Origin: Gimesia benthica
Lineage (GTDB): Bacteria > Planctomycetota > Planctomycetia > Planctomycetales > Planctomycetaceae
DNA length: 64,000 nt
Reading direction: 5' to 3'
Assembly (NCBI RefSeq): GCF_009720525.1
Contig: NZ_CP043930.1
Coordinates: 4,062,501 to 4,126,500 of the forward strand
Part shown: in pieces, positions 846 to 19,055 of the stretch
Layout: every line of letters starts with the position of its first letter
How positions within the stretch are numbered: position 1 is the stretch's first letter
Made by a program: the position numbers and the translations under genes
Notes under the pieces: generated by a model
Told to the model about the DNA's origin: nothing
Seen by the model: only the letters and a program-made list of their open reading frames with translations
Database searches by the model: none

Positions 846-1574
846 TTATGGTGCTGCCGGGAATGGCTGGTTGCGTTCGAATGTGTAATTCCAGAAGATT
901 GGGTACTCGATTGTGTTGTTGTTAATGCGTCGCGGGTTCCCCTGACGGATGACACGGCGGTCCAGCTTTTCGAAGTCTGCAAGATGTGCCAGTGGTGAGT
1001 CAGGTGTCGGATATCGCAGCAGGCCGACGCGTCGCCCGCTCTGCTGAATCGTGACGACGCTCGTCTCTGTGAGTTGCTGCTTCTGAAATCGTCCCGTGAT
1101 CGTCGCCAGATGCGCAAACGTTGGTCCACCGGTTCCGGTGGTCGAGAGCTGCGATTCGTAGTCCAGGATGTAGGGGTCGCCGTTCACGCCGACTGACGTG
1201 TCGTAGAGGTATGCAGCCTCCAGCACGATCTGATACTGACGACGGTTCACCAGTTCCCCTGGGGCCGCTCCTCGCTCGAAGCTCGGCGGTTTCACGACGC
1301 GAACACCGTAGAGTGTCTGATCGCTTTGAATGTTGAGAACTTTCGTCGCCCCGGACTGCCAGAGGATGTTTCCGTTCTGTCTCGCGTAAGCATTCGACAG
1401 TGCCGCCTGCTTCGTGAGCAGGTCAGCTAGCGAGTCACCCTGCAGAATACCGGCGATCGTTAAAGTAATGCTCTCACCGTAGACGAAGCCGGACGGGTTC
1501 TCCAAGCCGCGTTTCGCGACGTCAACGGTCACTTCGTATTCAGCGTGGGAGTAGTTGTTGTACGTGAAGATCAT
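846..1574 (-). CDS. Putative distal tail protein, phage module
   Basis: A 242-residue protein, no signal peptide or membrane segment. Its ATG (1574) overlaps the tape-measure stop as ATGA, so it is probably translated by re-initiation. Position directly after the tape measure in the gene order is where siphoviruses keep their distal tail or baseplate-hub protein, and the sequence is beta-rich with a mid-protein segment of the kind VVKPPSFERG. I do not recognise a specific family, so the role rests on position only. Confidence 0.55.
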   Translation of the reverse strand: MIFTYNNYSHAEYEVTVDVAKRGLENPSGFVYGESITLTIAGILQGDSLADLLTKQAALSNAYARQNGNILWQSGATKVLNIQSDQTLYGVRVVKPPSFERGAAPGELVNRRQYQIVLEAAYLYDTSVGVNGDPYILDYESQLSTTGTGGPTFAHLATITGRFQKQQLTETSVVTIQQSGRRVGLLRYPTPDSPLAHLADFEKLDRRVIRQGNPRRINNNTIEYPIFWNYTFERNQPFPAAP

Positions 1575-3829
1575 GGACTATAGTACCCCCGCATCAACTC
1601 ACTGTTATTGACCGCTTCCTTTAGTCGTTCGTTACTTCCATATACTGCGTCGAGTAATCCCAGCAGGGCTTGTTCGACTCCAACTCCGGATTGTGTGACC
1701 TGATCGGTAGCATTCCCTATTTTTTGTTGTGGATTCTGCTCTTTTCCTTGAGCTTCTTGGCTAAGTGAATTGTCAAGAAAGAATGATGCTGCAGCAGTGG
1801 CCGCGCCGCTTGTTCGCAGGAGTCGATGAAGCTCGCTACCTGTAATACTGTCCGAGCTAGTGTACTCTCCCACAACGTCTTTAAAGTGACCGAAAACACT
1901 TTTAGACTCAGGAATATTATCGACCCGGTTTTGCTCAACCTGTTTTTGACGACGATCATCATCAACCTGCTGTTGGGCTGCGATCTGCTCCTGATTCAGC
2001 TCCTTCAGGCGGTTCGATCCGACCAGCAGGTCATCTTCGACCTGTCTCTGTTCCCGGACGACCCGCTGTTTCTGTGCTTCCGCTTCCTGTTTCTGCTTCC
2101 GTGCTTCGGCTTCGGCCTGCTGAGAATCGCGGAACCCGTCGCCGAGACCAGCGGCAACGGCAACTGATCCGGCGGCGATCCCCTGCTGGGCACGGTAGTC
2201 GCGGACAATGTCCGAACCGAATCCGGGTGTCCTCTCCAGGAAGCGGATATCACGATCGGAGAGTTGTTCCCCCGCCTGTCTGCGGCGGTTAATATCTTTC
2301 AGGCGTTCCTGCTTGTAGCCGCTCAGCTCGGCGAACCGCTGATGCACCGATTTCTGGGCATCCTCCGCTGCCTTGATCGCATCCTTGCTCGCCCTAACCT
2401 GATCTTCGGCGACTTTCTTCTGGTCCATCAGAACGGAAAGCCGCTGCCGGTCTGCGTCGATCAAGTATCGGTTCGCCTCTTCGAGTTGCCGGGCGACTCG
2501 GAGCTGACCCTCTGTTGAAGCAAATCCATCATTTGCTATGTGCTCCTTTTCCGCTTCGCGGAATTCGAGCAACTCCTGCTCAGCGGCTTTAACCTCACGC
2601 AGTGCTTCGATGCGTGTCCGCTCTGCTGAATCGAGCGGGTTGTTGTTGTTTTGGGCGAGTTCGTAGTTGATCCGGTCCTGCAGTGCTGCCGTGGCGCGTG
2701 CCGACGAGCGATAACCAGCCTCTTGAGCGGCCCGCTCGGTAAACAGGTCCCGCTGCAGCTCTTTTCGCTGTTTCGCTTCCTCCGCTTTATGGAGATCCTC
2801 GGCAGATTTCGCCGCACTGTCGGCGGCGTTCTTCCAGCCGATCACAGCCCCGGTGAGCGTCTCTGTTTTTTCACTGGCCCCGAATAGGCCAGAGATCAAT
2901 GTCTTCAGCCCCTCGTGTAGTGCAAGACCAGCTGCGACAACAGCAGTGGCCGTTGCTGTGGCCCCGGCGACTGCACCGAGAGAGAGCCCACCGCCCCCGG
3001 CGATCTTTGCCCCGAGTGCACCGCCGACCTCAGACGCAATCTTACCGCCAGCGCCGCGAGTTCCTACGGCACCGCCGGCAACACCACCAGTGACGGCAGC
3101 CGCACCTTGTGTCGCAGCGACACGGGTATTGCTCGCAGAGAGTAGGGCGTTTGCTGTTGCCTGTGCTCGTGTCGCTTCATTAAGCGAGGTCAGAGCCTCG
3201 CGGCCTTTCCAGACCAGCTCGGTGAATCCTTTCAGTGCTTTGTAGCCCGCTTCAACTTTCTGGAAGCCTTGCTCAAATTTCTTGAAATTCTCATCGCTCA
3301 TCAGACCCAGATTCGCCAGGCCTTCCGTGAGGTCCATCACTCCCTGCAGAGCAGCGAGGCCCGCTTCAGTTGCTTTTTGTTGTGATTCAAGCTGTTTTTT
3401 GTGTGCTGCTTTCAGTTTTTCAGAAGCCTTGGCTTCGTTTTCCAGGCATTTCTCACGTTTGTCCGACTCCTTTTTTGTCTTATCAGTCTTCGCGTCTTCC
3501 AGGCTCTCCCAGATCCTTTTCATTCTTTTGGTGATTTTTCGGAGCTGACTGACAACCTTTTTATTCGTTTTCTGATTTTCTTCAAGGCTTTCCTCTCCCA
3601 GGCGACTAATTGAGTTCAAGAGTTCATTATTAAACTGTTCTCTTTTTTTCAGTTCTTTCTCCGAGATTTTAACGCGAATATCTGCGGCAGCCTTTGCCGC
3701 CTTAATTGCCGCTGTTTCTATCTCTTCGAAAGTTTTAATCATTTTCCCGGCAACACTCTTGTTCTTAGGATTTGCGACCAGGCTTAATTGAATAACAACA
3801 TTTCGTTGTGCTTCGGCTGCTTTAATCAT
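1571..3829 (-). CDS. Putative tail tape measure protein
   Basis: A 752-residue, highly charged, Ala/Gln/Glu/Lys-rich protein with long predicted coiled coils (about residues 30-170 and 340-640) on both sides of a hydrophobic Gly/Ala-rich stretch (about 215-320, with GGVAGGAVG and a possible membrane-inserting helix). This layout is what tape measure proteins look like: they set tail length and help DNA pass the host envelope. It sits just after the two tail-assembly chaperone frames, the conserved place in lambda-like tails. Its start overlaps the stop of the preceding frame (ATGA at 3826-3829) and its stop overlaps the next gene's start. At 752 residues it predicts a short tail. No lytic or peptidase domain was seen. 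Confidence 0.75.
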   Translation of the reverse strand: MIKAAEAQRNVVIQLSLVANPKNKSVAGKMIKTFEEIETAAIKAAKAAADIRVKISEKELKKREQFNNELLNSISRLGEESLEENQKTNKKVVSQLRKITKRMKRIWESLEDAKTDKTKKESDKREKCLENEAKASEKLKAAHKKQLESQQKATEAGLAALQGVMDLTEGLANLGLMSDENFKKFEQGFQKVEAGYKALKGFTELVWKGREALTSLNEATRAQATANALLSASNTRVAATQGAAAVTGGVAGGAVGTRGAGGKIASEVGGALGAKIAGGGGLSLGAVAGATATATAVVAAGLALHEGLKTLISGLFGASEKTETLTGAVIGWKNAADSAAKSAEDLHKAEEAKQRKELQRDLFTERAAQEAGYRSSARATAALQDRINYELAQNNNNPLDSAERTRIEALREVKAAEQELLEFREAEKEHIANDGFASTEGQLRVARQLEEANRYLIDADRQRLSVLMDQKKVAEDQVRASKDAIKAAEDAQKSVHQRFAELSGYKQERLKDINRRRQAGEQLSDRDIRFLERTPGFGSDIVRDYRAQQGIAAGSVAVAAGLGDGFRDSQQAEAEARKQKQEAEAQKQRVVREQRQVEDDLLVGSNRLKELNQEQIAAQQQVDDDRRQKQVEQNRVDNIPESKSVFGHFKDVVGEYTSSDSITGSELHRLLRTSGAATAAASFFLDNSLSQEAQGKEQNPQQKIGNATDQVTQSGVGVEQALLGLLDAVYGSNERLKEAVNNSELMRGYYSP

Positions 3830-4221
3830 TGTGATCTGTTAGCTCCCATCAGCGCGACCAATTCTTCAAATCTCTTTTTCTCGCTAGACTGATCAACGGT
3901 CCTTTGGATTAATCGGGCGTTCCTGCGGACAATTGGATCATCTGGAAATGCTCCGACAGCTTTACATTCGAGATAATGCAAGTATGCCTGAATGTTTCTG
4001 TGGGTTAATGTATTCTGTTTCTCTGGTGTTCCCTTCGGACAGCCAGAAGGAGTTTTGCAGAGTGGCAGATGCTTTTGATGCCTGAGATTTGGCCTTCCAT
4101 CTGCCCTGCCATTATGTGTTTCAACTTTTCCATAACCTTCAGTGCCAGGTGTGTCGTTGTAGGCATATTTCAAGCAGTGGATACAGTCGCGCACTGCAAA
4201 CTGCGGGTAGAGTAAAATCAA
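3826..4221 (-). CDS. Tail assembly chaperone, downstream (gpT-like) frame, reached by -1 frameshift
   Basis: This frame has no ATG at its front; the first possible start is TTG at 4221, which lies inside the hairpin of the frameshift signal. The -1 frame is open from the slippery site into this frame with six linking codons (LIAGVE), giving a fusion of about 287 residues with the upstream protein. This mirrors lambda gpG/gpGT, where the fusion recruits tail tube and tape measure. The frame encodes Cys/His pairs (CIHC near its start, HLPLC and a Cys 7 residues on) that could bind zinc. It overlaps the tape measure start by 4 bases. Independent translation from TTG cannot be ruled out. Confidence 0.7.
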   Translation of the reverse strand: MILLYPQFAVRDCIHCLKYAYNDTPGTEGYGKVETHNGRADGRPNLRHQKHLPLCKTPSGCPKGTPEKQNTLTHRNIQAYLHYLECKAVGAFPDDPIVRRNARLIQRTVDQSSEKKRFEELVALMGANRSQ

Positions 4222-4245
4222 CTCTACCCCTGCGATCAGTTTTTT
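4205..4245 (-). promoter_or_regulatory. Programmed -1 ribosomal frameshift signal
   Basis: Read on the minus strand: slippery heptamer A AAA AAC (4245-4239) in the correct phase (gcA AAA AAC), immediately followed by the zero-frame TGA (4238-4236), a 9-nt spacer, and a hairpin whose arms GGGTAGAG (4229-4222) and CTCTACCC (4212-4205) pair perfectly, with one more T-A pair possible inside. The -1 frame leads straight into the downstream chaperone frame without a stop. Confidence 0.85.
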
Positions 4246-4688
4246 GCCTGTTTCGCCGTTTTATTACCCGATCCATCCGACTCACCAGATAACAGTTCGT
4301 CAAAATTCAGGTCGGACTCGTCATTTAACTCCTCTTGAGACCCATCTACATCATCGTCGCTACCATCAAAGCAGGTCACGATATTGAATAGACGGTCTTT
4401 CAGTGGTTTTTTAATTCGTTTTAGGTTTTGAGCGTTGATTGGAAGTGGGGAGCCCTGGTGATCCTGCAGGTCCCACTCAATAAGCTGTCGCATTAAAGTC
4501 TGATCTACAATTTCACCTTGCGCTTTCGCCGATTTTTCGAAATAATTGTGCATCAACGCCCGTACCGATTCCGGAAGTACGGGACGATATTGAAACCGTA
4601 CGGTTTCGTGAACGTTTTTTATCTCTTTGATCAATCCGTTTTCTGTATAACCATCTGGAATATAGGCCCTGGCCTGTGATGTAGACAT
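4236..4688 (-). CDS. Tail assembly chaperone, upstream (gpG-like) frame
   Basis: A 150-residue soluble protein with an acidic C-terminal third (Asp/Glu/Ser-rich, residues ~110-140) and a Lys-rich end at the slippery site. ATG at 4688 has a purine-rich AAGGA about 10 bases upstream. Position between tail tube and tape measure, and the frameshift signal at its 3' end, identify it as the counterpart of lambda gpG: it would coat the tape measure during tail assembly, with a minor share of ribosomes making the longer fusion. No sequence family is recognised directly; the call rests on gene order plus the recoding signal. Confidence 0.75.
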   Translation of the reverse strand: MSTSQARAYIPDGYTENGLIKEIKNVHETVRFQYRPVLPESVRALMHNYFEKSAKAQGEIVDQTLMRQLIEWDLQDHQGSPLPINAQNLKRIKKPLKDRLFNIVTCFDGSDDDVDGSQEELNDESDLNFDELLSGESDGSGNKTAKQAKN

Positions 4689-4745
4689 TTCGTGTTTTTC
4701 CTTTTCTCAGATCAAGAATTGCATGAAATCAATGATGTGCCGAGT

Positions 4746-5639
4746 TCACGCATGTGCGTTGGTAACAATGAGACTGGGAGTGCTGCCTGCTTTGCGAACC
4801 ATGCCTTCCAGAGGCAATCGAGTAACCTGCGCCTTAGTGGTTCCGGGAGTTTTTGAGGGATACTGAATCGTACCGAACGTAAACGTCAGGATGTTGCTCG
4901 TGATTTCGGTGTTCGTAAATACCAGTGATCCACCCGCGCCGGTGAGATCCTGTTTTATTAAGTCCAGGTTATCCGTACTCCAGGGGTGATTAGTTGAAAG
5001 CGTGATGACTCGATCCAGAAGAGGGAGGTCCACTCGCGTGAGATTATTCTCAAATCGTTCTGTATCCAACTGGTTTTCAATCGTGAGGCTGAATTCACTA
5101 AACTCGCGAGTAGTGCTTTGCAAGGTAAGGACACCGTCTTCAAAGCGATATGGACTTTCGGTCGGTGTCGCTAACGTCGGAAAAGTGCCTGCATTTCCTT
5201 CTGTTTCTGTTTCGGCTTCGATGTCGAGCTCGATAAAGACCATCTGCCCTGACGAGCCGGTAAATGTCGCGCGAGCAATTCTACATCCTGAGTATGTGTA
5301 AACTTTTTCGTCTCGATCGACCATCATGTAGAATTCCGGAAGTGAATCTTCCAGGCCGAATTCATTTGAACTCTCATCACCACCTAAGATCAGCGGTAGC
5401 AATGTGTCGAGAGCTAACCGGCTCGCAGCCAGTTTGATAGAGCCGCTACAGCGTTTCTGACCCAGTCTGGTTCGTTCAGCGAGATGCTCGGTCGTACCAG
5501 TCGTGCCTCCTGTTTCGTCGATCGTCTGCGTTTCAATGAGCGATTCTGAATCAATAATTTCGATGGGGATTGAACTAGTGTCGAAAGGAAGGGCAGAGTC
5601 GATCGCCACACGCGTAAAAGTTCCGATTCCTAAAGTCAT
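4746..5639 (-). CDS. Phage tail tube protein
   Basis: A 297-residue beta-rich protein without signal peptide, in the position of the major tail tube gene between the head-tail joining genes and the chaperones. The N-terminal part (SSIPIEIIDSESL, then a TGTTEH segment) and two similar halves of alternating strands fit the tube family (Phage_tube_2-like) that stacks as hexamer rings to form the DNA conduit. ATG at 5639 has AAGGAAAC upstream. Distance to the next gene is 57 bp. Family assignment is by pattern and context, not by a diagnostic motif. Confidence 0.75.
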   Translation of the reverse strand: MTLGIGTFTRVAIDSALPFDTSSIPIEIIDSESLIETQTIDETGGTTGTTEHLAERTRLGQKRCSGSIKLAASRLALDTLLPLILGGDESSNEFGLEDSLPEFYMMVDRDEKVYTYSGCRIARATFTGSSGQMVFIELDIEAETETEGNAGTFPTLATPTESPYRFEDGVLTLQSTTREFSEFSLTIENQLDTERFENNLTRVDLPLLDRVITLSTNHPWSTDNLDLIKQDLTGAGGSLVFTNTEITSNILTFTFGTIQYPSKTPGTTKAQVTRLPLEGMVRKAGSTPSLIVTNAHA

Positions 5640-5656
5640 GGATTGTTTCCTTATTA

Positions 5657-6109
5657 TTAAATAGCGTCTATCACAGTCATTATGTGGTCTCGCAGTTTTT
5701 CGGCCGCGGAATCCTGTAAGTCCTCAGAAATACCAATAAAAGGACGAGCAGGAATTGTTCCAGTTCCGTATTGGTGGAAGGCTGCGTAAAACACACTGGT
5801 TCCTAACAATGTTGAATCCTGTGTCACAGTTTCAATATGTCCTGAGCTGTTTGAGATGACGCTCTGCATCAGCTTCCCGGTATCGATCAGAGGACGCGTG
5901 CCTGGGTTATGCCCGGGAGGTCTGGGATGTTTAGGAGGTGCCCAGGCAATTCCACCAGAGGATTGACTGTCTAAGAAACCCTCACCCAGAGCACTTGCAA
6001 GATCATCATTCCACTTACTCAGGATGTCCGAAGCTTGAGGTTCCGCTAGTCTTTGGACGACTCCATTGAGGAATTCTCTGAGTTCGCTGGTTGTAATTGT
6101 TTCAGGCAT
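5657..6109 (-). CDS. Phage virion morphogenesis protein (gpG / gp10-like tail completion)
   Basis: 150 residues. Carries the typical signature of Mu gpG-like / HK97 gp10-like proteins: PLIDTGKLMQSV (about 74-85), then YAAFHQYGTGTIPARPFIG (about 108-126), followed by a C-terminal helix. These proteins complete the head-proximal end of the tail. ATG at 6109 with AAGGACC 9 bases upstream; the gene overlaps the preceding one by 64 bases, which the strong ribosome binding site supports as real. Confidence 0.85.
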   Translation of the reverse strand: MPETITTSELREFLNGVVQRLAEPQASDILSKWNDDLASALGEGFLDSQSSGGIAWAPPKHPRPPGHNPGTRPLIDTGKLMQSVISNSSGHIETVTQDSTLLGTSVFYAAFHQYGTGTIPARPFIGISEDLQDSAAEKLRDHIMTVIDAI

Positions 6110-7764: not shown

Positions 7765-7842
7765 ACTTCACAGCCTTCTGTGGGTCTACTGAGAGTATTT
7801 GCTTATCAATTTCAATTTGGTGTGGAAGGATGAAAAAACAGT

Positions 7843-8679: not shown

Positions 8680-9954
8680 TTAAGCTCGCGTAGCCAGAGT
8701 GACAAAGCTGGACTGCGTTGCGGTCCCTTTGTAGGGAGTCAATGGCTGAGTTTCCCAGGGTTTGCCATCAATACGCATAATAAACCTCAGTGCCAGCTGG
8801 TCAGTCAGGAACTCGACGTGCATCGATTCTGCCTGTTCGATGCCTCCTTTGCTGATGGTGATGTAATCATCAAGACTGGCGAGCATGATGTCTCCTTCGG
8901 TACCGAGCGTCTCATTAAACTCAGTGGGAATCACGGGCCGTCCCATTAAGGTCGCGTAAGATGCCTCTGACAGACCGGAAGGCGGCATATAAACTAACTG
9001 GCCTCCAGCGGTAGAAACTCCCAGGCTCATTTGATGAAGTTGCGGTTCAGTGTCCTGATTGATGAACCAGGCAGAATTTTTGCGAGAGGAAGCCCGCATT
9101 CTGCTCCACATATGCAGGATGTTCTCAGCGACGATACTGTTCGCTGCCTGTCCTGACTCTTTGGGAACCGTCACCCGGGCAGATGATTGCATGATTCCGA
9201 GTGGTTTTCCAACTCCGTTTCCGTTGAAGATGGATTCCCCGAGCATGAATTCCATTTCTTCAGTCACTTTTTTATTGACATACGCTTCGAGTGCCAGGCC
9301 GTTATCGTTGATAAGCTCTTCCGTAAGATAAACAAGAACAGCCAGCTTATTGAGTTTTAATGTCGTCTCACCGAGCTTGGGAGCCGCACCCGTGAGGGGA
9401 TCTCCCTCTCCAACCCAGTAGGCACGCAGACCACCAGCGCGCGAACCATCGGATCGACTGGATTCTGGATCCGTTGGAAAGGTCATATTATTACCGGCTA
9501 CCTGGTAGTGGTCGGTGCGACTGAAAATGTCGTTCTGGTAGATGTGGGTCAAAATCTCCTGATGAAATTCAGGTAAGATTGCGATTCCACCATCCGCTCC
9601 AACAACTTCCGACATTCCCTGGATCGCTTTGCACTTACCCCAGGAGTTCTTTGTTTTTGAGATCAGCTCGCTTCGATCTTTGAAACCGCAGCGAATAAAT
9701 TCTCCGAAAGATTTAAATTCGGAATAAGGTTGATATCCGCTGGGAAAAGTACGCATTGATTTGATACGTTGTTGCTTTACATTTTTCGAGCTGGTGGAGT
9801 TTTCTTCCTCCTGTTCCCAATAGCTGGTCAATCTGCCCTGTGCATCATGTCGAAGGCCACTGATATCGGGGGCGTTTAACTGATCGACACTTTTGGTGAG
9901 ACTTTCGATGTTGGAAGAGAGGGACTTTACTTTTTCCTCAAGAGTATCAGACAT
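8680..9954 (-). CDS. HK97-family major capsid protein
   Basis: 424 residues with the HK97 capsid layout: an N-terminal coiled-coil delta-like region (about 1-95, starting SDTLEEKVKSL), then the shell domain beginning near GGIAILPEFHQEIL (about 122-135) and containing the spine-helix region VYLTEELINDN (about 208-218), the segment FNGNGVGKPLGIM (about 241-253) and a C-terminal A-domain/spine end RFIMRIDGKPWETQ. The delta region is about 95 residues and probably removed by the protease encoded next. ATG at 9954 with AAGGA 7 bases upstream. Confidence 0.92.
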   Translation of the reverse strand: MSDTLEEKVKSLSSNIESLTKSVDQLNAPDISGLRHDAQGRLTSYWEQEEENSTSSKNVKQQRIKSMRTFPSGYQPYSEFKSFGEFIRCGFKDRSELISKTKNSWGKCKAIQGMSEVVGADGGIAILPEFHQEILTHIYQNDIFSRTDHYQVAGNNMTFPTDPESSRSDGSRAGGLRAYWVGEGDPLTGAAPKLGETTLKLNKLAVLVYLTEELINDNGLALEAYVNKKVTEEMEFMLGESIFNGNGVGKPLGIMQSSARVTVPKESGQAANSIVAENILHMWSRMRASSRKNSAWFINQDTEPQLHQMSLGVSTAGGQLVYMPPSGLSEASYATLMGRPVIPTEFNETLGTEGDIMLASLDDYITISKGGIEQAESMHVEFLTDQLALRFIMRIDGKPWETQPLTPYKGTATQSSFVTLATRA

Positions 9955-10042: not shown

Positions 10043-11407
10043 CTACTTTTTCTGAGCAGGTAGTAGATCGCAGATCTTTTGTTGAAGCACCGCTAGTGAT
10101 TTCGAAAGTGACTCAACATGCTCTTCAAGTTTCTGATTACTGATGCTGACTGGTGCGTCATTTTGTAACTGGATTTCCTTCAGGATTTTCTCCATCAACT
10201 GACGCTGATCGCTTGAACCTCTCAGTGTTTTGTAATTCTGAAGTTGAGGTGATCCCATACTATTTGCGAATCTGTTTAGTTGTGTCTCCTTAACCAAAAG
10301 TGGAAACTCTGAGTGGAGTGGGCTTTTCATTGAATCAGGACTCTGAGGAGTGTGCTCAGAGTCACTCTGGGAAGGGAGATGCTTATATATTTTCTGATAA
10401 AGTTGGTTCAGATCATTCTGTTCGTCTTGAAGTGCCTGAAGAAAAGGTTTCAGACGTTGTTGAATTCGTTCGTTTTCCAGAATTGCTTCTGTAGAACTCA
10501 CCTGATCTGTTAACTGACTGATCGAGTCTGAAATGAATCGAAGCAGTTGAGCGCCTAATGGTATCCGCTGGTTTTTGTCTTTAACCTCTATTTCCGCTTC
10601 ACAGGTTTCATTAGATGCAGACTTAAATGAGATGCTCTGTGCTTCTTTTGGAGAATCGGAAAGTGGTGGATGATGAGCCTGTTGAGAGGCAGTCGATTTA
10701 ATGGATCGACTGATTTCGACATTCGTCTTATTCGCAGCAGACCAACCTGGAATTGAGATCTGGTCAGCAGGTAAAACTGCCTGAAGTGACTTCAAGAGCG
10801 GTGCGGTGATTTTCCGGCCTTCAATAGTCCCTCGATCAAGTGTTCGAGCGATCGCATCGGGGTTAACTCCCAGTGCCCCCCAGGACCACTCGATCAATTC
10901 CCATTCTTCGAGAATAATCCCCGAACCTGCATTTGATGTCTTTCTAATAGCAGACTTGATGGGCAGGGCCCGCACAGAAGTTGCTCTCACCAGGCCTTCT
11001 GCGATCAGGTGGAATATCTGTAAAGATTCCAGACACTTGTCAGTAAAAAATGAAGTGGCTGTAATTTCGTGATCTGATACATGCAGAGCGAGTTTGCCGT
11101 CGGGCTGCTGACATTTGGCAATCGGGCGTGTGAGTTCTCCCAGACCATGTTCCCAAAGAACGACTGGGTTGTTGCGATAATTTTCGAGATGAACACCTCG
11201 AGGTACGATTACGTCACCTTCTCGGTCTTCGCGTGGAGTGTTGATGACAGCTCGCGCCGACATCAGTCGTACGTCTACGACTGGTTGAGTATGACAAAGG
11301 AGTGAGAGGTCAGACGACTGATCAGCGAAACTGCAGAAGGAACCGAATTTCTGTGTTCGGTCTTTAAGAATCGTCTGTAAAGAATTGTCCGCTTTTGAAT
11401 TATTCAC
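10043..11407 (-). CDS. HK97-family prohead protease with long C-terminal scaffold-like region
   Basis: 454 residues, GTG start at 11407 with no strong ribosome binding site. The N-terminal 200 residues carry the caudovirus prohead protease layout: EDREGDVIVPRG (about 59-70), the NPVVLWEHG segment with the catalytic His (about 79-87), and a conserved Ser in EGLVRATSVRALP (about 136-148). The remaining 250 residues are Gln/Ser/Lys-rich and helical, more like a scaffold than a protease, so this may be a fused protease-scaffold. It would clip the delta domain of the capsid protein. It lies immediately upstream of the capsid gene but is separated from the portal by three non-phage genes. Confidence 0.82.
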   Translation of the reverse strand: MNNSKADNSLQTILKDRTQKFGSFCSFADQSSDLSLLCHTQPVVDVRLMSARAVINTPREDREGDVIVPRGVHLENYRNNPVVLWEHGLGELTRPIAKCQQPDGKLALHVSDHEITATSFFTDKCLESLQIFHLIAEGLVRATSVRALPIKSAIRKTSNAGSGIILEEWELIEWSWGALGVNPDAIARTLDRGTIEGRKITAPLLKSLQAVLPADQISIPGWSAANKTNVEISRSIKSTASQQAHHPPLSDSPKEAQSISFKSASNETCEAEIEVKDKNQRIPLGAQLLRFISDSISQLTDQVSSTEAILENERIQQRLKPFLQALQDEQNDLNQLYQKIYKHLPSQSDSEHTPQSPDSMKSPLHSEFPLLVKETQLNRFANSMGSPQLQNYKTLRGSSDQRQLMEKILKEIQLQNDAPVSISNQKLEEHVESLSKSLAVLQQKICDLLPAQKK

Positions 11408-11801: not shown

Positions 11802-12494
11802 TCAAGCTGCACGTTTATGGGATTCAGAGTTGTCAGAGACTCCAACTGTATCAGCTGAGGTGTCCTCTTGTGTCTCCGAGGCAATTCGATTTGAATAAAT
11901 ACGGTCAATAAAATCTGGAAATTGATTCCATGCGCCGGGGGCCTGATTCCAGATCATAGCGATTTTACTGAAGAATGTCATTTCGTATCTGGCAATCACC
12001 AGGCTCTGGATCGTGTCATTGGGATCCAGGTCAGAAGCCGTCCATTGTCGAGAACAGAGGTCATAGGCAGGTTCGCCATCTCGACCATTAGAAGGAATAT
12101 CATACAGGATCGCCAGCTCATTAGAGGCATTCAATTTAGCCGGAAAGCAGCGACAGGTTTGAGGGCGATTTTGGTAGATTCTGCAGCGGCCCAGCCCTTT
12201 GGGATGCTCATCATCAGGAAGGCATTCCATCAGAAATCGGCATTTTGTAGTTCCGGGGAATGAACTGCTGGGGATGTGTTTCAGGCAAATCACGAAAGGG
12301 GTTTCAGGATCGTCCTCAAACAGAAAATGAGGTGCCAGGTTACGTGAGATGAGTCCTTCGGTGTCTTCCCAGCGACAGGCGAAATCCCAGAAATTCAAGT
12401 TCTGGCGATGAGTGAAATGATGGATGTCTGCACCGGATATCGGAACTGCAAAAGAGCGACAACAACCAGAATGGCAGGAATCACAAATGCCCAT
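11802..12494 (-). CDS. YkgJ-like cysteine cluster protein
   Basis: 230 residues. Starts with a dense Cys motif, CDSCHSGCC (residues 4-12), and has a second cluster in CRIYQNRPQTCRCFP (about 103-117) and a Cys about 85; this is the CxxCxxxCC zinc- or iron-sulphur-cluster family (YkgJ). Biochemical role of the family is unsettled, with links to flagellar motility and to Fe-S handling. It lies in the same direction as the prohead protease but is a cellular-type gene and part of the insert between portal and protease. ATG at 12494 has only a weak ribosome binding site. Confidence 0.7.
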   Translation of the reverse strand: MGICDSCHSGCCRSFAVPISGADIHHFTHRQNLNFWDFACRWEDTEGLISRNLAPHFLFEDDPETPFVICLKHIPSSSFPGTTKCRFLMECLPDDEHPKGLGRCRIYQNRPQTCRCFPAKLNASNELAILYDIPSNGRDGEPAYDLCSRQWTASDLDPNDTIQSLVIARYEMTFFSKIAMIWNQAPGAWNQFPDFIDRIYSNRIASETQEDTSADTVGVSDNSESHKRAA

Positions 12495-12674
12495 TCGTTT
12501 TCTAACTTACCAAGAAGGAGCTGGCGAAATTGAATAACGACACAAGACGCATGTCTTTGAACTGAAAATAACGCTATCGCTATAATCGGCGTAATCAGCA
12601 AACTCGCTTGAGTTTATTCCTGATTCAGTACTCTTTGGAAAAAAAACTGACTAAAAAATACTGCGTAACTGCTA

Positions 12675-12771
12675 TCAGGAAAAAGACTTAACGGCGTTGG
12701 ACAGCCGCTGCATGCCTTCCCGGATTCCTTCCGGGTTTTGAACACCAAACGTTAACCGCATGTGATTTTTT
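12675..12771 (-). other. Frame-shifted C-terminal tail of the aminotransferase
   Basis: In the -1 frame past an A6 run (12771-12766 on the minus strand) the sequence reads NHMRLTFGVQNPEGIREG and continues to a TGA at 12675-12677. This is the conserved end of class I/II aminotransferases of the 2-aminoadipate type, including the Arg expected to bind the substrate carboxylate. One extra A would join it to the main frame, giving about 433 residues. Either a sequencing or mutation indel in the homopolymer, or a true inactivation. Confidence 0.75.
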
Positions 12772-13975
12772 GTGGGGCCAGCTGTTCATCGGGCGGGAGA
12801 CCTTGGTCAACAGCATAAAATAATTCGCCGGGAACATACATTACTTTCTCTGTATGTACAGCGCGTTCGAAGAGAGGACTTTGGAACCCGGTTTCAATTG
12901 ACTCGGGCAGGGTCATCCAGACGTAGAGTCCCCCATTTGGATGTACCCAATGAACACCAGGAATATCTGAAAAATATTCATCGGCGGCTTCCAGCATGCA
13001 GTCTCGTTTTTCGCGATACACATTTCGGAGGGTTGCAACGTGGTCGTAGTATAAATGATCGCTCATCACGCGAGTTAAAATATGCTGACTCAGATTCGTA
13101 GATCCAAAGTCATCATTTCCTTTCTTGTCGCGTATGGCAGCGCAAACTTCAAGCGGGGCAACCCCAAAGCCCACTCTTAAACCGGGGGAAAAACTTTTGG
13201 AAAAAGTTTGTGTGAGAATGACATTATCGCCGGAAGGATCGAAGCTACGTATACTCGGTGTTACGGGGCCGTCATAACAGAGTTCACGATAGGCGAGGTC
13301 TTCCAGGATGAAGATACGTTGTGACTTTGACCACTTGCGTGCGATGTCGACAATCTGCTGTCGCCGATCAATCGACAGGGAGAGACCGGAAGGATTTTCA
13401 TAATCGCTTACTACGTAGATCATCTTGACTTTTGCCAGATCCCCCTGGGACTCCAGCATGTCGAGCGTTGATTCGAGTGAGTCCATTCGCATACCGAATT
13501 CATCTGTTTCGACAGATACGATGCGCGCTCCCAGTCCTTGGAGTACACCCAGAAAGACAAAATAGGTAGGAGCTGCAACCAGGCAGATGTCACCGGGATC
13601 GAGCAATATCTCACCGACCAGAGACAGATACTGCTGTGAGCCTGTGGTGGCAATGATATTATCCAAAGTGATTCCCAGCTCGTCAGCTGGTTTTTGTTCC
13701 AGATTAGATATATGGGACAGCAGCAATGTTCTTAAAGCGACTGATCCAGCCGTCGTTCCATACTGTAATGCTTCCAGTCCCATTTTGGGGGTGGTGAACA
13801 GGCTCTCCAGGGCCTGCCTGGTGGATTCTATCGGGAGGCTACTCTGGTCGACCAGGCCTGCTGCCAGAGACAGAACCCCCGGATTTTCTACACCCTGCTG
13901 CATGAGAAAACTGATGGGTAAATCGTGGCTCCAGGTTCTTTTTTTACTGAAACTGATATTACTGCGCGTGGACAT
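12752..13975 (-). CDS. PLP-dependent aminotransferase, 2-aminoadipate/LysN type, truncated by frameshift
   Basis: Class I/II aminotransferase of the LysN / MocR-catalytic type (amino acid plus 2-oxo acid exchange; substrate unknown). Seen: GVLSLAAGLVDQSSLP near the N-terminus, QYGTTAGSVALR, TGSQQYLSLV, YVVSDYENPSGLSLS with the PLP-contact region, and VILTQTFSKSFSPGLRVGF, whose Lys in TFSKSF is the expected PLP Schiff-base residue. ATG at 13975 has AGAGG 9 bases upstream and is preferred over a TTG at 14017. The frame stops early at 12752; the missing 26 residues are present one frame over (see separate entry). Divergent from the symporter gene and probably regulated with it. Confidence 0.8.
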   Translation of the reverse strand: MSTRSNISFSKKRTWSHDLPISFLMQQGVENPGVLSLAAGLVDQSSLPIESTRQALESLFTTPKMGLEALQYGTTAGSVALRTLLLSHISNLEQKPADELGITLDNIIATTGSQQYLSLVGEILLDPGDICLVAAPTYFVFLGVLQGLGARIVSVETDEFGMRMDSLESTLDMLESQGDLAKVKMIYVVSDYENPSGLSLSIDRRQQIVDIARKWSKSQRIFILEDLAYRELCYDGPVTPSIRSFDPSGDNVILTQTFSKSFSPGLRVGFGVAPLEVCAAIRDKKGNDDFGSTNLSQHILTRVMSDHLYYDHVATLRNVYREKRDCMLEAADEYFSDIPGVHWVHPNGGLYVWMTLPESIETGFQSPLFERAVHTEKVMYVPGELFYAVDQGLPPDEQLAPQKITCG

Positions 13976-14215
13976 GGTGCATGGCCTCTGGGAAATGGAA
14001 CTTGCTTTTACCCGCAAATAAAGTTTGAATCAGCACATCGGTATAGAATTCAGCATAATCTTGATCCTCCTGATTTACCATGAACTTTGAGGTGACTGAA
14101 TTGAAATCAGGGTTCATTGTCAGCATACTGAAATATAAATTTGCCTGAAGACAGGTCTGCTGCAGCTCACTCCACCCATGATACTTAATTCGTATTCAGA
14201 GCAGGAAACCACATC

Positions 14216-15850
14216 TTGAAATTGTTTATTTCCATTGCGACTCTGTCCATCGTCTTTTCTCTGAATACTCCACTTTCGGCAGCAGAATCAGCTGCTGAGC
14301 CCTTGCCTATAAACACGGGTCTGCATCCGGTCGACTGGATGATCATAGCCGTTTACGCAATTCTCACGATATTTCTGGGCTGGTACTTCAGTCGAGGGCA
14401 GGAAGATACTTCTGAATATTTTGTGGGCAGCGGTCAGATGAATCCGTTTCTGATCGGTGTTTCTCTCTTTGCCACACTCCTGAGTACAATCACTTATCTC
14501 TCTACTCCAGGAGAAATTCTGGGAAAAGGGCCCGTCTATCTGGTCAAAGACCTGGCAATGCCTTTCATTTTCATCATTGTTGGTTATGTGATGTTGCCGG
14601 TATATATGAAAAGTCGGGTTACCAGTGCATACGAACTTCTGGAAGAAAAACTGGGGCTCGGTATTCGTATGCTGGGAGCAGTCATGTTCCTGGGCTTGCG
14701 ATTAATCTGGATGTCGTTGCTGGTCTATTTGACAGCAAAAGCGATCACGACAATGTTGAATGTCGGAGAGGAGTGGATTCCCTATATCGTTCTGGGTACA
14801 GGGTTGGTGGCCATTATTTATACCTCCCTGGGGGGCTTACGTGCTGTGGTCATCACCGATTTAATCCAGACGATTCTATTGTTTGGTGGAGCCTTGCTGG
14901 TGATTGCCACCATTACTTACCACCTGGGGGGCTTCAGCTGGTTTCCTACGCAGTGGGACTCTAACTGGGATACACAGCCATTTTTCAGTACTGATCCGGC
15001 GACACGCGTGACATATGTCGGCACATTTTTGTCTATTCTGATCTGGTATGTCGCTACCATGTGTGGAGACCAGGTTTCCGTGCAGCGATTCATGTCGACC
15101 CGGGATGCAGTAGCAGCACGACGATCTCTGGCTATCCAACTGACCGTTTCAGTGGTTGTGTCATTGACGCTGGCGATGGTTGGTTTTGCGTTGCTGGGGT
15201 ATTTCAATGCGTTTCCGAGTGAAATTCCTGCCGGTATGGAGCTCAAAAAAGACGCGGATAAATTTTTCCCGCATTACATTGCAAATCATCTTCCTGTTGG
15301 AATCTCAGGGTGTGTAGTTTCAGCGATGTTTGCAGCAGCCATGTCCAGCATCGATTCCGGCGTGAACTCCATCACAGCAGTCGTAATGACAGACTTTTTG
15401 GATCGATTTGGTTTCAAGCCTAAAACAGAACGGGGTCATGTTTTATCAGCACGTCTGCTGGCCTTGGGAATTGGAGTCATCGTGGTTCTGTCCAGTTCAT
15501 TGATGGGAAGTATTCCAGGAAACATCACTGCTGTGACGAATAAAACCGCGAACTTATTGACCACCCCTATTTTCTGCCTCTTCTTTTTTGCTCTTTTTAT
15601 CCCTTTTTCCAAGCCCGCCGGCGTACTGGTCGGGGCAGTATTGGGAACGACGACTGCCGTGTTGATTGCTTTTTCAGGACCTATTTTTATCGAAAATTAC
15701 ACCTCTGATATGCCTGATCCGATCAGTTTTCAATGGATTGCACCGGCCGCGGTTTCAGTAAATATCGCCAGCGGTTGCCTGGTCAGTTATCTCATCGCCA
15801 GTGCACAACAAAAGAAGTCGGGAGTAAAACGGGATCTGACTTCCGATTAA
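14216..15850 (+). CDS. Sodium:solute symporter family (SSS) transporter
   Basis: 544 residues. A signal-peptide-like N-terminus (to about residue 25) is followed by about 13 membrane helices. Family hallmarks: DWMIIAVYAILTIFLGWYF (TM1), a LYDG-like EDTSEYFVGS, LLSTITYLSTPGE, and Ser-rich AAAMSSIDSGVNSIT, a region that in SSS proteins binds Na+. The substrate cannot be told from the sequence. TTG start at 14216 with AGGA upstream; an ATG 123 bases downstream would lose the first helix. Its stop TAA (15848-15850) overlaps the stop of the convergent portal gene in a TTAA. It is a cellular gene inside the phage head module. Confidence 0.88.
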   Translation: MKLFISIATLSIVFSLNTPLSAAESAAEPLPINTGLHPVDWMIIAVYAILTIFLGWYFSRGQEDTSEYFVGSGQMNPFLIGVSLFATLLSTITYLSTPGEILGKGPVYLVKDLAMPFIFIIVGYVMLPVYMKSRVTSAYELLEEKLGLGIRMLGAVMFLGLRLIWMSLLVYLTAKAITTMLNVGEEWIPYIVLGTGLVAIIYTSLGGLRAVVITDLIQTILLFGGALLVIATITYHLGGFSWFPTQWDSNWDTQPFFSTDPATRVTYVGTFLSILIWYVATMCGDQVSVQRFMSTRDAVAARRSLAIQLTVSVVVSLTLAMVGFALLGYFNAFPSEIPAGMELKKDADKFFPHYIANHLPVGISGCVVSAMFAAAMSSIDSGVNSITAVVMTDFLDRFGFKPKTERGHVLSARLLALGIGVIVVLSSSLMGSIPGNITAVTNKTANLLTTPIFCLFFFALFIPFSKPAGVLVGAVLGTTTAVLIAFSGPIFIENYTSDMPDPISFQWIAPAAVSVNIASGCLVSYLIASAQQKKSGVKRDLTSD

Positions 15851-17301
15851 TTTGCCCCATTCATCAATGTGGGATCAGCACGCAGGTGTAACGCATCCAT
15901 CAGGCTTTTTCCCGGTGGTAGACTGGGGGCCGTAGTATGATCTTCTGTTTGTGATTCAGAGTGAACAGGTTGCTTTCGGTCGGCGCTGACAATTTGGTCC
16001 CCCCCATTTTCTGGACCAAGAGGCGGTAGCCCACGAATCGCCCGCAATTCGTCTACTTTGATAATCTGGGCTCGAATATCTGTCGCCAGACGCTTTTCCA
16101 GCAGATCTGGATCATCAATTTGGGTCGCTTCGATTTCAATGGTCAGGTTCCTCCCGAACTGAGGGGCGAGATGCTCCGTATCATCTTCTGCCAGTAAATC
16201 CAGAATGGGTTGAACAGTCAGAGAAATGAACTGCTTTAAACTGGCGTAAAAAGCGGCATAACTTCCACCATCTGAGATTCCTGCAGCAATTCCAGGGACC
16301 CCATGTAAAGCCAGAATCGCATCTCTAAATTCGACGAATGAAGCGTTGTAGTCCATCTCCCGGGGAGTGGCCGTAAGTGAGACGACTTGCTCACCGGTTG
16401 TAAAGATCGCCTTGCCTGTATTTTCAGTACCCCCATATTTTTGATCAAACATCGCGGCTGCGGCTTCAAGTTCTTCTCTGGTTGGGCGCATATCCTTTCC
16501 GCAGGTGACGACAATTGATGGATCGGCTCCATTATTCATCTGAGCCCAACGAGCTGCATCGATCTGATTGGCTGAGTCGATCCAGCGGGCACCCGCGCTG
16601 ACAGGAGATTGTCCGTCGTCCTGGTAAAGTGGATGGGGCCATCGCGTGATCTGTAGCTGTGAGAGTGGGATGACTTTTCCCAATACCTGCTGCAGTAGAT
16701 GGTGTGAACTGGAGTAACTTGAAAAGTAGTCAAGATCATAGCGCGACGAAGGTGTCTGTATCCTATAGCCGCCTTCAGGCATATCTGTTGAAGGGGCAAC
16801 TGGCGACGCGATCGCGGTGGGAATTACATAACGGTGGACAGTCTTCCCAAACTGATTGGGCACATTCCAGACGATACTTGTCCCAGTCAGTTGGAGTTGT
16901 AAGACACGCTCATAGCGGAAGGCTGCACCCGATTGAGTGGGATTGGGGTGTTTGAGAATCTGGCAAAGCGCATGATCGTTCGACAGAGGAATGGACGCAC
17001 CGGCTTCACCGGCATACAAGCTTCGTGTAAGTCCATATCCAGCGTCCATTCTCAGGTGGCGTCGGAACAATTTTTGATTGGAATTATTTACAGTGTCATC
17101 GTAGACAGCCACCGAAGCTTGCATAGCCTGCAGGCAAATTGCCCGAATTGCAACAAACGTCCAACCAGTGAACTGTTCTGACTCCTCTCGATGGTCACTG
17201 TGCCATCTGCCTGGTTGGCCAGTCCCGAGTGCGGTTCGCAGTGCGACTGCGAACCGGTTTGATTTGAATCGTGCGGCAAGCTGTTTGAAGGGGTTCCACA
17301 T
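15847..17301 (-). CDS. HK97-family portal protein
   Basis: 484 residues, the ring at the capsid vertex through which DNA is packaged. Evidence: N-terminal core NRFAVALRTALG, FVAIRAICLQAMQASVAVYD helix region (about 49-68), ILKHPNPTQSGAAFR (about 113-127), the clip/wing region, and ILALHGVPGIAAGISDGGSYAA (about 338-355) typical of HK97 portals. ATG at 17301 with AAGGA 9 bases upstream. It follows TerL by 56 bases, as in HK97-type order. The next gene on its strand is not the protease; instead a convergent symporter gene shares its stop region. Confidence 0.9.
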   Translation of the reverse strand: MWNPFKQLAARFKSNRFAVALRTALGTGQPGRWHSDHREESEQFTGWTFVAIRAICLQAMQASVAVYDDTVNNSNQKLFRRHLRMDAGYGLTRSLYAGEAGASIPLSNDHALCQILKHPNPTQSGAAFRYERVLQLQLTGTSIVWNVPNQFGKTVHRYVIPTAIASPVAPSTDMPEGGYRIQTPSSRYDLDYFSSYSSSHHLLQQVLGKVIPLSQLQITRWPHPLYQDDGQSPVSAGARWIDSANQIDAARWAQMNNGADPSIVVTCGKDMRPTREELEAAAAMFDQKYGGTENTGKAIFTTGEQVVSLTATPREMDYNASFVEFRDAILALHGVPGIAAGISDGGSYAAFYASLKQFISLTVQPILDLLAEDDTEHLAPQFGRNLTIEIEATQIDDPDLLEKRLATDIRAQIIKVDELRAIRGLPPLGPENGGDQIVSADRKQPVHSESQTEDHTTAPSLPPGKSLMDALHLRADPTLMNGAN

Positions 17302-17357: not shown

Positions 17358-19055
17358 TCAGGCAACAATCAGTCTTCGCCGGGATTGATCACGTAGCGCA
17401 CAGAGACAGTAGACGACTGCATCAGCCCGATCGGGAGAACGTCCCAATGTCTCCCTCAACGTTTTGCCCTGATAGTTTTCGTCAGACCCTCGCCGTCCTT
17501 TGGGGGTGATATAAAATTTTTCACCGTCATGCCCGGAGTATATTTTCTGAGGTGCTATCAGTTCTGCCCGCAGGCGTTCATTATCAGGCAAAGCGAATGG
17601 TATCATGCGGAAGTCCCCCGCCGGGTCAAGGCGTCTTGCAGCCTCTCCGTAGAGTTCGGCCCGTTTGTTGGCATATTTTTGAGTATCGATATCACTTGCT
17701 GAATTACTGTGAATTTCGATCACATGTACGTTTCGATTTTTTAGAGGATCACCGACTGCGTTCCCATAACCCCCTCCCCAGTCGATGGCCAACGGAACAA
17801 TTCCCTGTTCTAGATCAACTCCGTATGTCATTGCGGTTTCGATTACCCACTCGAGCGTCTGCTGTGTATCTGCGAACTGGCATTCATGGATGGCTCGGAT
17901 ACCGTACCTGCCACCGACGGCAAGGACTGAGGTATCTCCAAATCGGGAAGCGGCGACATCCAGTCCAAAACCCTCAACTGGAATAATCTGATTCAACAGA
18001 TGAATTGCAGACTTGTGTTGGTTTTCCGTAGCACGTCGCCAGAGATGATGCCAGCGTGTCCAGAATGAGACAGGTTCTACCAGCCAGTCTGAGAGAATGA
18101 CCTGTTTCTCAGGATCCTGATCCGGAAACTTGCCTAGTGCATATACATTACGAATGAGTGGATCCGGATCGTTTAATAAGGATATAAATTCGTCGTAGCA
18201 CGTCTGTCCGGGAATACGGGGCTTACATTGTTCGAAGTCTTTGGTTTCAATCGACGTACCATGCGAATAGAACCTGCTTCCGATTTTGATACCACCCAAG
18301 GGGGCGACTGGTTGTTCCAGGCAGGTCTCTTTCACATTTGTGCATTCCCAGCCACTGACGGTGATACAGCGTGTTTTACCATATTGGTCCACAATAGTTT
18401 GGGTGCGATCTGGTTCTATACTCGGAAAGGCATCTCGAAATGATCCCGAAAGTGTGGATGGATTGGAGAGAGCCAGAAATTTTTTTGCCTGAGTGTTGGC
18501 TAGTTTATATTTGTCTTCGAGATTCGGGGCCGTTGCCTCATCAAACCAGAAAAGAACATGTGGCGAGTGTGCGCCTCTGAAACCTTCAATATGCTTAGGG
18601 TTAGCCAGGGAAATAGAATGCTGTTGATGATCATAAATTCCCGAAGTCAACAATTTCCCTGGTGGCTTTACCGTCATCCGTCTCCACCATTTATCGACTT
18701 CCCCGTAGGCAATTTTCTGAGCCATCCTGAGTGAGTCTCGCGTAATTACAATTTTGGCATCGTCCCAGATATGAAAGTAAGTGCAACAGGCAATTCCTGC
18801 AGCAGCTCCCTTACCACAACCGGTGTTACCTTTGACGAATACGCGGCGAATAGTGGGATCGAATAGAGACTCCAGAATGTCCCATTGCCATTCATCCAGT
18901 TGGACACCAGGCCATTGTATTTCAACGTAGTGGCGAATCTGACCTGTTCGGGCTTGTTCAATGGCGGAATCCAAATTGGTGTCATCACCATTCTGTGTAC
19001 GTTTTCTATGTTGCTGCTCGCAGGCTGCAAACTGATTCTGCTCAGAAGAATTCAA
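17358..19055 (-). CDS. Terminase large subunit (TerL)
   Basis: 565 residues. N-terminal packaging ATPase: Walker A-like KGNTGCGKGA (75-84), the adenine/motor region FHIWDDAKIVITRDS, and Walker B VLFWFDEA (167-174) with the catalytic Glu. C-terminal RNase H-like nuclease: GFGLDVAASRFGDTSVLA (about 366-383) with metal-binding Asp, and RADAVVYCLCAL near the end with the final Asp. It cuts and pumps DNA into the capsid. The start is TTG at 19055; the frame closes 24 bases upstream. No small terminase gene was found beside it, on either strand, within the window. Confidence 0.9.
   Translation of the reverse strand: MNSSEQNQFAACEQQHRKRTQNGDDTNLDSAIEQARTGQIRHYVEIQWPGVQLDEWQWDILESLFDPTIRRVFVKGNTGCGKGAAAGIACCTYFHIWDDAKIVITRDSLRMAQKIAYGEVDKWWRRMTVKPPGKLLTSGIYDHQQHSISLANPKHIEGFRGAHSPHVLFWFDEATAPNLEDKYKLANTQAKKFLALSNPSTLSGSFRDAFPSIEPDRTQTIVDQYGKTRCITVSGWECTNVKETCLEQPVAPLGGIKIGSRFYSHGTSIETKDFEQCKPRIPGQTCYDEFISLLNDPDPLIRNVYALGKFPDQDPEKQVILSDWLVEPVSFWTRWHHLWRRATENQHKSAIHLLNQIIPVEGFGLDVAASRFGDTSVLAVGGRYGIRAIHECQFADTQQTLEWVIETAMTYGVDLEQGIVPLAIDWGGGYGNAVGDPLKNRNVHVIEIHSNSASDIDTQKYANKRAELYGEAARRLDPAGDFRMIPFALPDNERLRAELIAPQKIYSGHDGEKFYITPKGRRGSDENYQGKTLRETLGRSPDRADAVVYCLCALRDQSRRRLIVA

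What the first reader, a model, noticed from the sequence alone, without database searches (positions are those of the whole stretch)
4205..4250. Textbook -1 ribosomal frameshift signal in the tail chaperone genes
On the minus strand the upstream frame ends gcA AAA AAC TGA: the slippery heptamer is in the right phase, abuts the stop codon, and is followed after 9 nt by a perfect 8-bp hairpin (GGGTAGAG/CTCTACCC). The downstream frame lies in the -1 frame with no stop between, and has only a TTG start buried in the hairpin. Known family behaviour: lambda gpG/gpGT. Cys pairs in the extension are unusual for this role.
Basis: partly seen in the sequence, partly recalled or inferred. Interest (0 to 1): 0.75.

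Follow-up and report, generated by a model that had tools for sequence, protein, structure and literature searches.

The report
Frameshift signal in phage tail genes
In a phage-derived gene cluster of a Gimesia-like (planctomycete) chromosome, ribosomes are very probably made to slip back one base at the end of one tail-assembly gene and read on into the next; the slip signal is kept in nearly all relatives, so this is a well-supported new case of a known trick, with a new cysteine-rich extension.

Summary
In detail: A AAA AAC at 4239-4245(-), TGA directly after, a 9-nt spacer, then a hairpin of 9 bp, not 8. Relatives support a programmed -1 ribosomal frameshift. An in-phase XXXAAAC heptamer stands at the junction in 35 of 37 non-redundant homologues, against 2 of 3500 other codon positions. 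The hairpin is stronger than synonymous recoding gives (mean z -2.57); six later windows average near zero. The two homologues without a heptamer, L073 and L092, encode both parts in one frame, and their hairpin signal is gone. No start codon for the downstream frame is conserved. The upstream protein resembles tail assembly chaperones by predicted fold. The extension has four cysteines invariant in 38 of 38 rows. Two points stand out: 53 of 53 heptamers end in AAC, a class reported as weak in E. coli; and the cluster lies at one locus in its genus, with host genes inside it, terminase in 16 of 17 genomes, and terminase, portal and capsid trees matching host genes, so it may be gene-transfer-agent-like. 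No protein or frameshift efficiency was measured.

The parts
4236..4688 (-). upstream (0-frame) gene, 150 aa, tail assembly chaperone-like 'G' protein
   Evidence: ORF; homologues in 12 of 40 genomes searched, its own included; AF2 model pLDDT 72.7 matches viral proteins named tail assembly chaperone
4239..4245 (-). slippery heptamer A AAA AAC in -1 phase
   Evidence: XXXAAAC at this place in 35 of 37 non-redundant homologues
4236..4238 (-). 0-frame stop TGA directly after the heptamer
   Evidence: adjacent in 26 of 35 non-redundant heptamer-bearing homologues
4205..4229 (-). stimulatory hairpin, 9 bp stem and 7-nt loop, 9 nt after the heptamer
   Evidence: pair counts; synonymous-codon test z -4.41 for this sequence
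3826..4242 (-). -1 frame extension ('T-like'), 137 aa after the junction, Cys20/23/62/68 invariant; its stop overlaps the next start (ATGA)
   Evidence: dN/dS 0.157 (G000/G008) and 0.130 (G001/G002)
1571..3829 (-). 752-aa probable tape measure protein (by place and length only)
   Evidence: no PHROG or Pfam family at E 0.001 or better; in NCBIfam only an SMC model at E 3e-4, far under its cut-off
4746..5639 (-). tail tube protein
   Evidence: Pfam PF18906 E 4.5e-18
5657..6109 (-). tail completion / neck protein
   Evidence: phrog_26 E 5.7e-18
8680..9954 (-). HK97-type major capsid protein
   Evidence: TIGR01554 E 3.8e-66
10043..11407 (-). probable head maturation protease
   Evidence: phrog_80 E 0.0019; better-scoring head family phrog_617 E 1.2e-9
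15847..17301 (-). portal protein
   Evidence: Pfam PF04860 E 1.6e-28
17358..19055 (-). terminase large subunit
   Evidence: phrog_2 E 2.4e-11; no Pfam or NCBIfam match at E 0.001
11802..15850 (.). three host-type genes between portal and protease: CxxCxxCC protein (-), aminotransferase (-), sodium/solute symporter (+)
   Evidence: Pfam hits; same order in relatives, symporter not found at this place in G003 and G010

Best explanation
This is a programmed -1 ribosomal frameshift that makes a short and a long form of a tail assembly chaperone (lambda gpG/gpGT logic). Most ribosomes stop at TGA and release the 150-aa G protein. Some pause at the hairpin while tRNA-Lys and tRNA-Asn sit on AAA AAC, both slip back one base onto AAA AAA, and translation goes on in the -1 frame to a 287-aa G-extension fusion that reads K-N-L at the junction. 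Shown here: site, phase, hairpin, their conservation beyond coding need, purifying selection on the -1 frame, lack of a conserved start, natural in-frame fusions. Inferred: that slippage happens, its efficiency, tandem rather than single-tRNA slippage, that G binds the tape measure and the extension binds the tail tube protein, and that the four Cys bind a metal.
For: Heptamer: 12 of 13 first homologue loci have A AAA AAC directly before the stop; the miss is a degraded second copy. Wider set: 53 of 55 distinct and 35 of 37 non-redundant regions have XXXAAAC in phase (31 AAAAAAC, 3 GGGAAAC, 1 CCCAAAC); background 2 of 3500 codon positions. GGG and CCC variants keep re-pairing but shorten the A run, which speaks for ribosomal, not transcriptional, slippage. 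Hairpin: permuting synonymous codons gives mean z -2.57 over 37 at this place (60 permutations each) and -0.46 to +0.22 in six later windows; with 500 permutations 27 of 37 have p<0.05; z +0.83 and +0.30 in the two homologues without heptamer. Covariation 0.275 against 0.169 +/- 0.020, 0 of 500 shuffles. L073 and L092 carry G and extension in one frame, with R-N-L and K-N-L at the join. dN/dS of the -1 frame 0.157 and 0.130 in the two pairs of four where dS was not saturated. Start codon plus SD-like site in the first 25 extension codons in 3 of 35. G model matches phage proteins named tail assembly chaperone, best of these E 2.6e-3.
Against: No protein evidence. RNAalifold found no consensus structure on all 36 sequences, and 21.9% of the named pairs' cells are unpaired; two of the five pair measures are only weakly above shuffles (pairs changed on both sides 6 against 4.8, reached in 62 of 500; pair types 21 against 17.4, 22 of 500). 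AAC-ending heptamers shift less well in E. coli (passages of PMC5009743 and PMC4066793), so efficiency may be low. No chaperone family of Pfam, NCBIfam or PHROGs is reached, apart from one member of 35 at E 0.062 to Phage_TAC_4. The tape measure gene is identified by place and length only. The G000/G008 dN/dS rests on few changes (dS 0.08). The sequences are related, so the combined p-value printed is not a true probability.
Confidence: 0.94

Rival explanations
1. The extension is a separate protein, translated from TTG 4221 (or another start) by re-initiation after the TGA stop.
For: TTG begins 14 nt after the stop with an AGGGG upstream; AGGGG was not among the SD-like strings counted.
Against: A start-type codon at this place (codon 8) occurs in 8 of 35; the commonest early candidate (codon 6) is GTG or ATG in 23 of 35 and GTA in the window; SD-like plus start in 3 of 35. 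Gly5, before both, is invariant in 38 of 38. Two relatives encode a fusion.
Confidence: 0.03
2. Transcriptional slippage on the A6 run gives mixed mRNAs that encode the fusion.
For: The run is six A, ended by C.
Against: GGGAAAC and CCCAAAC stand in for AAAAAAC in 12 of 53 distinct cases, and a selected hairpin follows; both are features of ribosomal slippage.
Confidence: 0.02
3. The extension is a decayed or chance open frame and the signal is coincidence.
For: Degraded or cut copies do exist: L011 in the same genome, L038, L040.
Against: dN/dS 0.13-0.16, invariant Cys4 in 38 of 38, heptamer in 35 of 37.
Confidence: 0.01

Closest known systems
phage lambda gpG/gpGT and the tail assembly chaperone frameshifts of many long-tailed phages (described in PMC5009743, passages seen)
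   Same: place after the tail tube gene, -1 slippery heptamer at the end of the first gene, no conserved start for the second, moderately similar fold of the first protein to named chaperones
   Different: no detectable sequence family link; heptamer ends in AAC (lambda's GGGAAAG is recalled); Cys4 extension; stop directly after the heptamer in 26 of 35
[quoted passage not shown] quoted in PMC5009743)
   Same: two of the three use the same heptamers in the same gene role
   Different: archaeal hosts; extension sequences not compared here
HK97-like chaperone fs-gene cluster and the A-rich consensus heptamers, A_AAA_AAC among them, of prokaryotic fs-gene clusters (PMC3711429, passages seen); chaperone frameshift measured at 7%
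   Same: gene role and recoding; A_AAA_AAC is already on that list
   Different: no link to the proteins of this window was found or sought there
Gene transfer agents such as RcGTA (recalled)
   Same: phage head-tail cluster at one chromosomal place, terminase, portal and capsid inherited with the host
   Different: no DNA packaging or transfer shown; tail genes exchanged; cluster incomplete in several species

Membership tests
lambda-type tail assembly chaperone -1 frameshift (G/GT) | two frames between tail tube gene and tape measure gene | tested here: met
   tail tube by PF18906; order kept in relatives; tape measure by place and length only
lambda-type tail assembly chaperone -1 frameshift (G/GT) | in-phase -1 slippery heptamer at the overlap | tested here: met
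   35 of 37 non-redundant
lambda-type tail assembly chaperone -1 frameshift (G/GT) | second frame lacks its own start | tested here: met
   no conserved start; SD-like plus start in 3 of 35
lambda-type tail assembly chaperone -1 frameshift (G/GT) | first protein has a chaperone fold | tested here: inconclusive
   Foldseek: eiAU Gp15 7.7e-4, Gemini TAC E 2.6e-3, 019DV002 TAC 2.8e-3; TM-scores about 0.4 by query length
lambda-type tail assembly chaperone -1 frameshift (G/GT) | sequence membership in a known chaperone family | tested here: not met
   PHROGs, Pfam, NCBIfam
lambda-type tail assembly chaperone -1 frameshift (G/GT) | both products made in a fixed ratio; G binds tape measure, T binds tail tube | not testable with these tools
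   needs protein work
gene transfer agent | vertical inheritance at a fixed locus | tested here: met
   met for terminase, portal and capsid only: terminase close to asparagine-tRNA ligase in 16 of 17 genus genomes; their trees have the AsnRS splits for 8 taxa. Connector trees differ in part and tail trees clearly
gene transfer agent | structural genes under purifying selection | tested here: met
   dN/dS capsid 0.02-0.04, terminase 0.06-0.10, portal 0.05-0.08; weaker for protease (0.14-0.43) and the tape measure candidate (0.33-0.50)
gene transfer agent | no integration or replication genes of its own | tested here: inconclusive
   none among the ORFs scanned, but not every ORF was scanned
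gene transfer agent | packages and transfers host DNA | not testable with these tools
   needs particles

The most novel reading that the evidence does not exclude
The frameshift serves a domesticated, gene-transfer-agent-like particle that was fixed in the ancestor of this Gimesia-like genus beside the asparagine-tRNA ligase gene. Terminase, portal and capsid have since been inherited with the host, the tail module has been swapped with phages, and the slippage uses eukaryote-type AAC heptamers, which planctomycete ribosomes may tolerate better than E. coli ribosomes do.
Probability: 0.3. Interest if true: 0.75.

Novelty: new member of a known kind. Interest (0 to 1): 0.5.

Why it matters
It adds a chaperone/extension pair that reaches no described family in the three libraries searched, with unusually full comparative support, including natural in-frame fusions that point to the fusion as the wanted product. 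It offers a test of whether the E. coli rule on heptamer endings holds in a distant bacterial phylum. Its setting suggests a long-kept phage-derived cluster in a genus for which the paper searches made here showed no gene transfer agent.

Tried and rejected
RNAalifold on all 36 signal regions gave no structure; pair counts and a synonymous-codon test were used as well, and all outcomes are reported. Rfam: no match in 3500-5000. Extension: PDB by fold, 0 of 32 listed hits at E<=0.001; BFVD by fold, 1 of 140 at E<=0.001, an uncharacterised uncultured phage protein; PDB by sequence, none at E<=1; 50,697 phage and 72,556 plasmid records, no match at E<=0.01 with the window's extension alone. Scattered weak family hits were taken as chance: for G, PF25345 in 2 of 35 (best 3e-4), phrog_12068 in 1 of 37 (6.9e-4), phrog_9046 in 6 of 37 (best 0.0049, unknown function); for the extension, phrog_10223 in 1 of 38 (0.0052) and DUF6472 in 3 of 38 (best 0.024).

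Idea that AAC heptamers are used because AAG cannot slip where a tRNA-Lys with CUU anticodon exists: the host does have tRNA-Lys CTT and TTT, but in IS3-type elements of the genus, 15 distinct in-phase sites were found in the 30 loci handed out of 97 matches: GGGAAAG 6, GGGAAAC 6, AAAAAAA 2, GGGAAAA 1. Many of these are near-copies of few elements. So AAG is not excluded and the idea is not supported; the same count shows AAC sites in other elements there. Idea that tRNA-Asn lacks queuosine: a tRNA-guanine transglycosylase is present, so no support.

Rows dropped before counting: L038 and L040 (start of the extension missing or degraded) were left out of the 55; identical regions were merged; 37 were kept at under 90% identity. 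The first 13 loci overlap with later ones.

Full report
What is there. On the minus strand a 150-codon gene (4688-4236) ends gcA AAA AAC TGA. Nine bases after the heptamer begins a perfect 9-bp hairpin with a 7-nt loop (4229-4205). The stretch folds better than all 200 shuffles (z -3.87). The -1 frame is open from before the heptamer to the stop at 3826-3828 and overlaps the start of the next gene by ATGA. TTG 4221 is its first start candidate; a GTG and a TTG follow within 30 codons. The heptamer by itself is common in the window (18 against 12.6 expected); only its place is remarkable.

Relatives. A search with the upstream protein matched 12 of 40 genomes, the window's own included. Thirteen loci were read: 12 have A AAA AAC directly before TGA, TAA or TAG and an open -1 frame; the thirteenth is a degraded second copy in the window's own genome. 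With the extension as an alignment, 14 of 392 phylum genomes matched, its own included (at most 10 candidates per genome were scored, so this is a lower bound), 6 loci came from genome contigs and 49 from viral contigs; the window's extension alone found nothing in 50,697 phage or 72,556 plasmid records. A contig record (L042), with the same length and match as G010:C316, is titled uncultured Gimesia sp., so the genus is Gimesia or very near it.

Heptamer statistics. One search read 82 loci, with many repeats. After leaving out L038 and L040 (the beginning of the extension is missing or degraded) and merging identical regions there were 55 distinct and 37 non-redundant regions. XXXAAAC in the -1 phase at the same residue: 53 of 55 (41 AAAAAAC, 10 GGGAAAC, 2 CCCAAAC) and 35 of 37 (31, 3, 1). 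The 0-frame stop is adjacent in 36 of 53 and 26 of 35. In the same upstream frames, 2 of 3500 other codon positions carry any in-phase heptamer of the type searched.

The two exceptions point to the product. In L073 and L092 the G domain and the extension lie in one continuous frame, with R-N-L and K-N-L at the join. K-N-L is the junction that tandem slippage on A AAA AAC followed by CTN would give; this inference rests on two cases. In both, the hairpin is no better than synonymous recoding (z +0.83, +0.30).

Hairpin. The stem is written largely by codons for Gly-Val and His/Tyr-Pro of the extension, so coding could fake it. Permuting synonymous codons within each extension gene gave, over 37 sequences, mean z -2.57 for the window 13-52 nt from the heptamer start and means between -0.46 and +0.22 in six later windows (60 permutations per sequence); with 500 permutations 27 of 37 had p<0.05, and the window's own sequence had z -4.41. 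Pair counts on 36 sequences: 78.1% of cells paired against 72.3 +/- 1.3 shuffled, 32 cells with both sides changed against 14.3 +/- 3.1, covariation 0.275 against 0.169 +/- 0.020 (0 of 500 each); slid versions score lower on these three. Two other measures are weak: pairs with a change on both sides 6 against 4.8 (62 of 500; two slid versions also reach 6) and further pair types 21 against 17.4 (22 of 500). RNAalifold on the whole set returned no structure, and about a fifth of cells are unpaired.

The proteins. G (150 aa): no chaperone family in PHROGs, Pfam or NCBIfam at a convincing level (best hint one member of 35 to Phage_TAC_4 at E 0.062). Its model (pLDDT 72.7, 35 rows) matches best two unnamed or uncharacterised viral proteins (E 3.3e-11, 2.1e-8), then Edwardsiella phage eiAU Gp15 (E 7.7e-4), and further down proteins named tail assembly chaperone from Bacillus phages Gemini and 019DV002 (E 2.6e-3 and 2.8e-3); TM-scores near 0.4 for the named ones make this support moderate. 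Extension: Cys 20, 23, 62 and 68 are invariant in 38 of 38 rows; the spacing suggests a metal site (inference). Its model (pLDDT 76.8, 12 rows) has no PDB match at E<=0.001. dN/dS of the extension is 0.157 for G000/G008 (few changes, dS 0.08) and 0.130 for G001/G002; in the other two pairs tried dS was saturated.

Why AAC. [quoted passage not shown] coli; [quoted passage not shown] Passages of PMC4066793 state that in E. [quoted passage not shown] All 53 heptamers here break that rule. A_AAA_AAC is not unheard of in prokaryotes: it is among the consensus heptamers of PMC3711429 (passages). Either a low level is what tail assembly needs, or planctomycete ribosomes differ. IS3-type elements of the same genus use both GGGAAAG (6) and GGGAAAC (6) among 15 distinct sites in 30 of 97 matches, so AAC occurs in other elements there, and AAG is not excluded.

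The setting. The cluster runs terminase, portal, then three host-type genes (symporter, aminotransferase, CxxCxxCC protein), then protease, capsid, connectors, tail. Terminase lies close to the asparagine-tRNA ligase gene in 16 of 17 genomes of the genus; the symporter was not found at this place in G003 and G010. Clear capsid orthologues occur in 11 of 17; the tally of 12 counts one 22%-identity match (G015), one capsid is truncated (G016) and one is split over two contigs (G010). Intact G and extension with this cluster: 9 of 17 (G000, G001, G002, G003, G007, G008, G009, G010, G014; in G010 on a contig apart from terminase); G011 lacks them, G016 has a deletion, and the G013 copy lies elsewhere. 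For eight taxa the terminase, portal and capsid trees have the same five splits as AsnRS, the lipase and the aminotransferase; the CxxCxxCC gene and the connector genes p170, HTC220 and TT159 keep the deep split but differ in inner ones; the neck, tail tube, G, extension and following genes have another topology. Capsid, terminase and portal are under strong purifying selection, protease and tape measure candidate less so. So the front part is inherited with the host and the tail part, frameshift included, has been exchanged. This fits a domesticated, gene-transfer-agent-like cluster, but absence of the capsid part from G004, G012, G013 and G005 (G005 is 76% complete) and a gap of about 43 kb within the portal gene of G008 fit slow decay as well. 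No paper holding both 'gene transfer agent' and 'Gimesia' was found; the listings for Planctomycetes (20 of 26 shown) and Planctomycetota (6 of 6) held none with a gene transfer agent in its title; only titles and abstract starts were seen.

Verdict. The finding is right. It is a new member of a known kind, with an extension that reaches no described family and an unusual heptamer preference; the setting is the more surprising part and remains unproven.

Noticed in passing
window 1571-19055: Phage head-tail cluster with three host-type genes between portal and protease; terminase at the same chromosomal place in 16 of 17 genomes of the genus; looks domesticated.
   Followed up: partly
L020, L016, L022 against window 846-6109: Sharp drop in identity from the neck gene on (G009: capsid 92%, G 39%) and a changed tree topology: the tail module was exchanged.
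   Followed up: partly
L158:6939-7898 and L135:1503-2006: Portal gene of G008 is split by about 43 kb, with residues 317-320 matched on both sides.
   Followed up: no
L144:10125-11126: In G016 a deletion joins capsid residues 1-250 to the extension from about model position 32 on.
   Followed up: no
L011:6207-6476: A degraded second G-like copy in the window's genome, with a stop inside, lies about 0.3 kb from a tRNA-Val gene.
   Followed up: no
L097, L098, L104: The same 27-bp stretch of tRNA-Lys(CTT) occurs three times (near 16.6 kb, 26.4 kb and 8.025 Mb of the chromosome), but ARAGORN finds a whole tRNA at only one: possible attachment sites of integrated elements.
   Followed up: no
L099:1486-1557: A tRNA array (near 1.57 Mb of the chromosome) contains a tRNA that ARAGORN reads with a four-base anticodon ttta.
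   Followed up: no
L021:2488-6262: After the tail genes come a Gly/Tyr-rich 597-aa protein and a 657-aa glycosyltransferase with a Cys-rich N-terminus.
   Followed up: no
L166, L168, L169, L170, L177, L181: IS3-type elements of the genus have an in-phase GGGAAAC heptamer at the orfA/orfB junction.
   Followed up: partly
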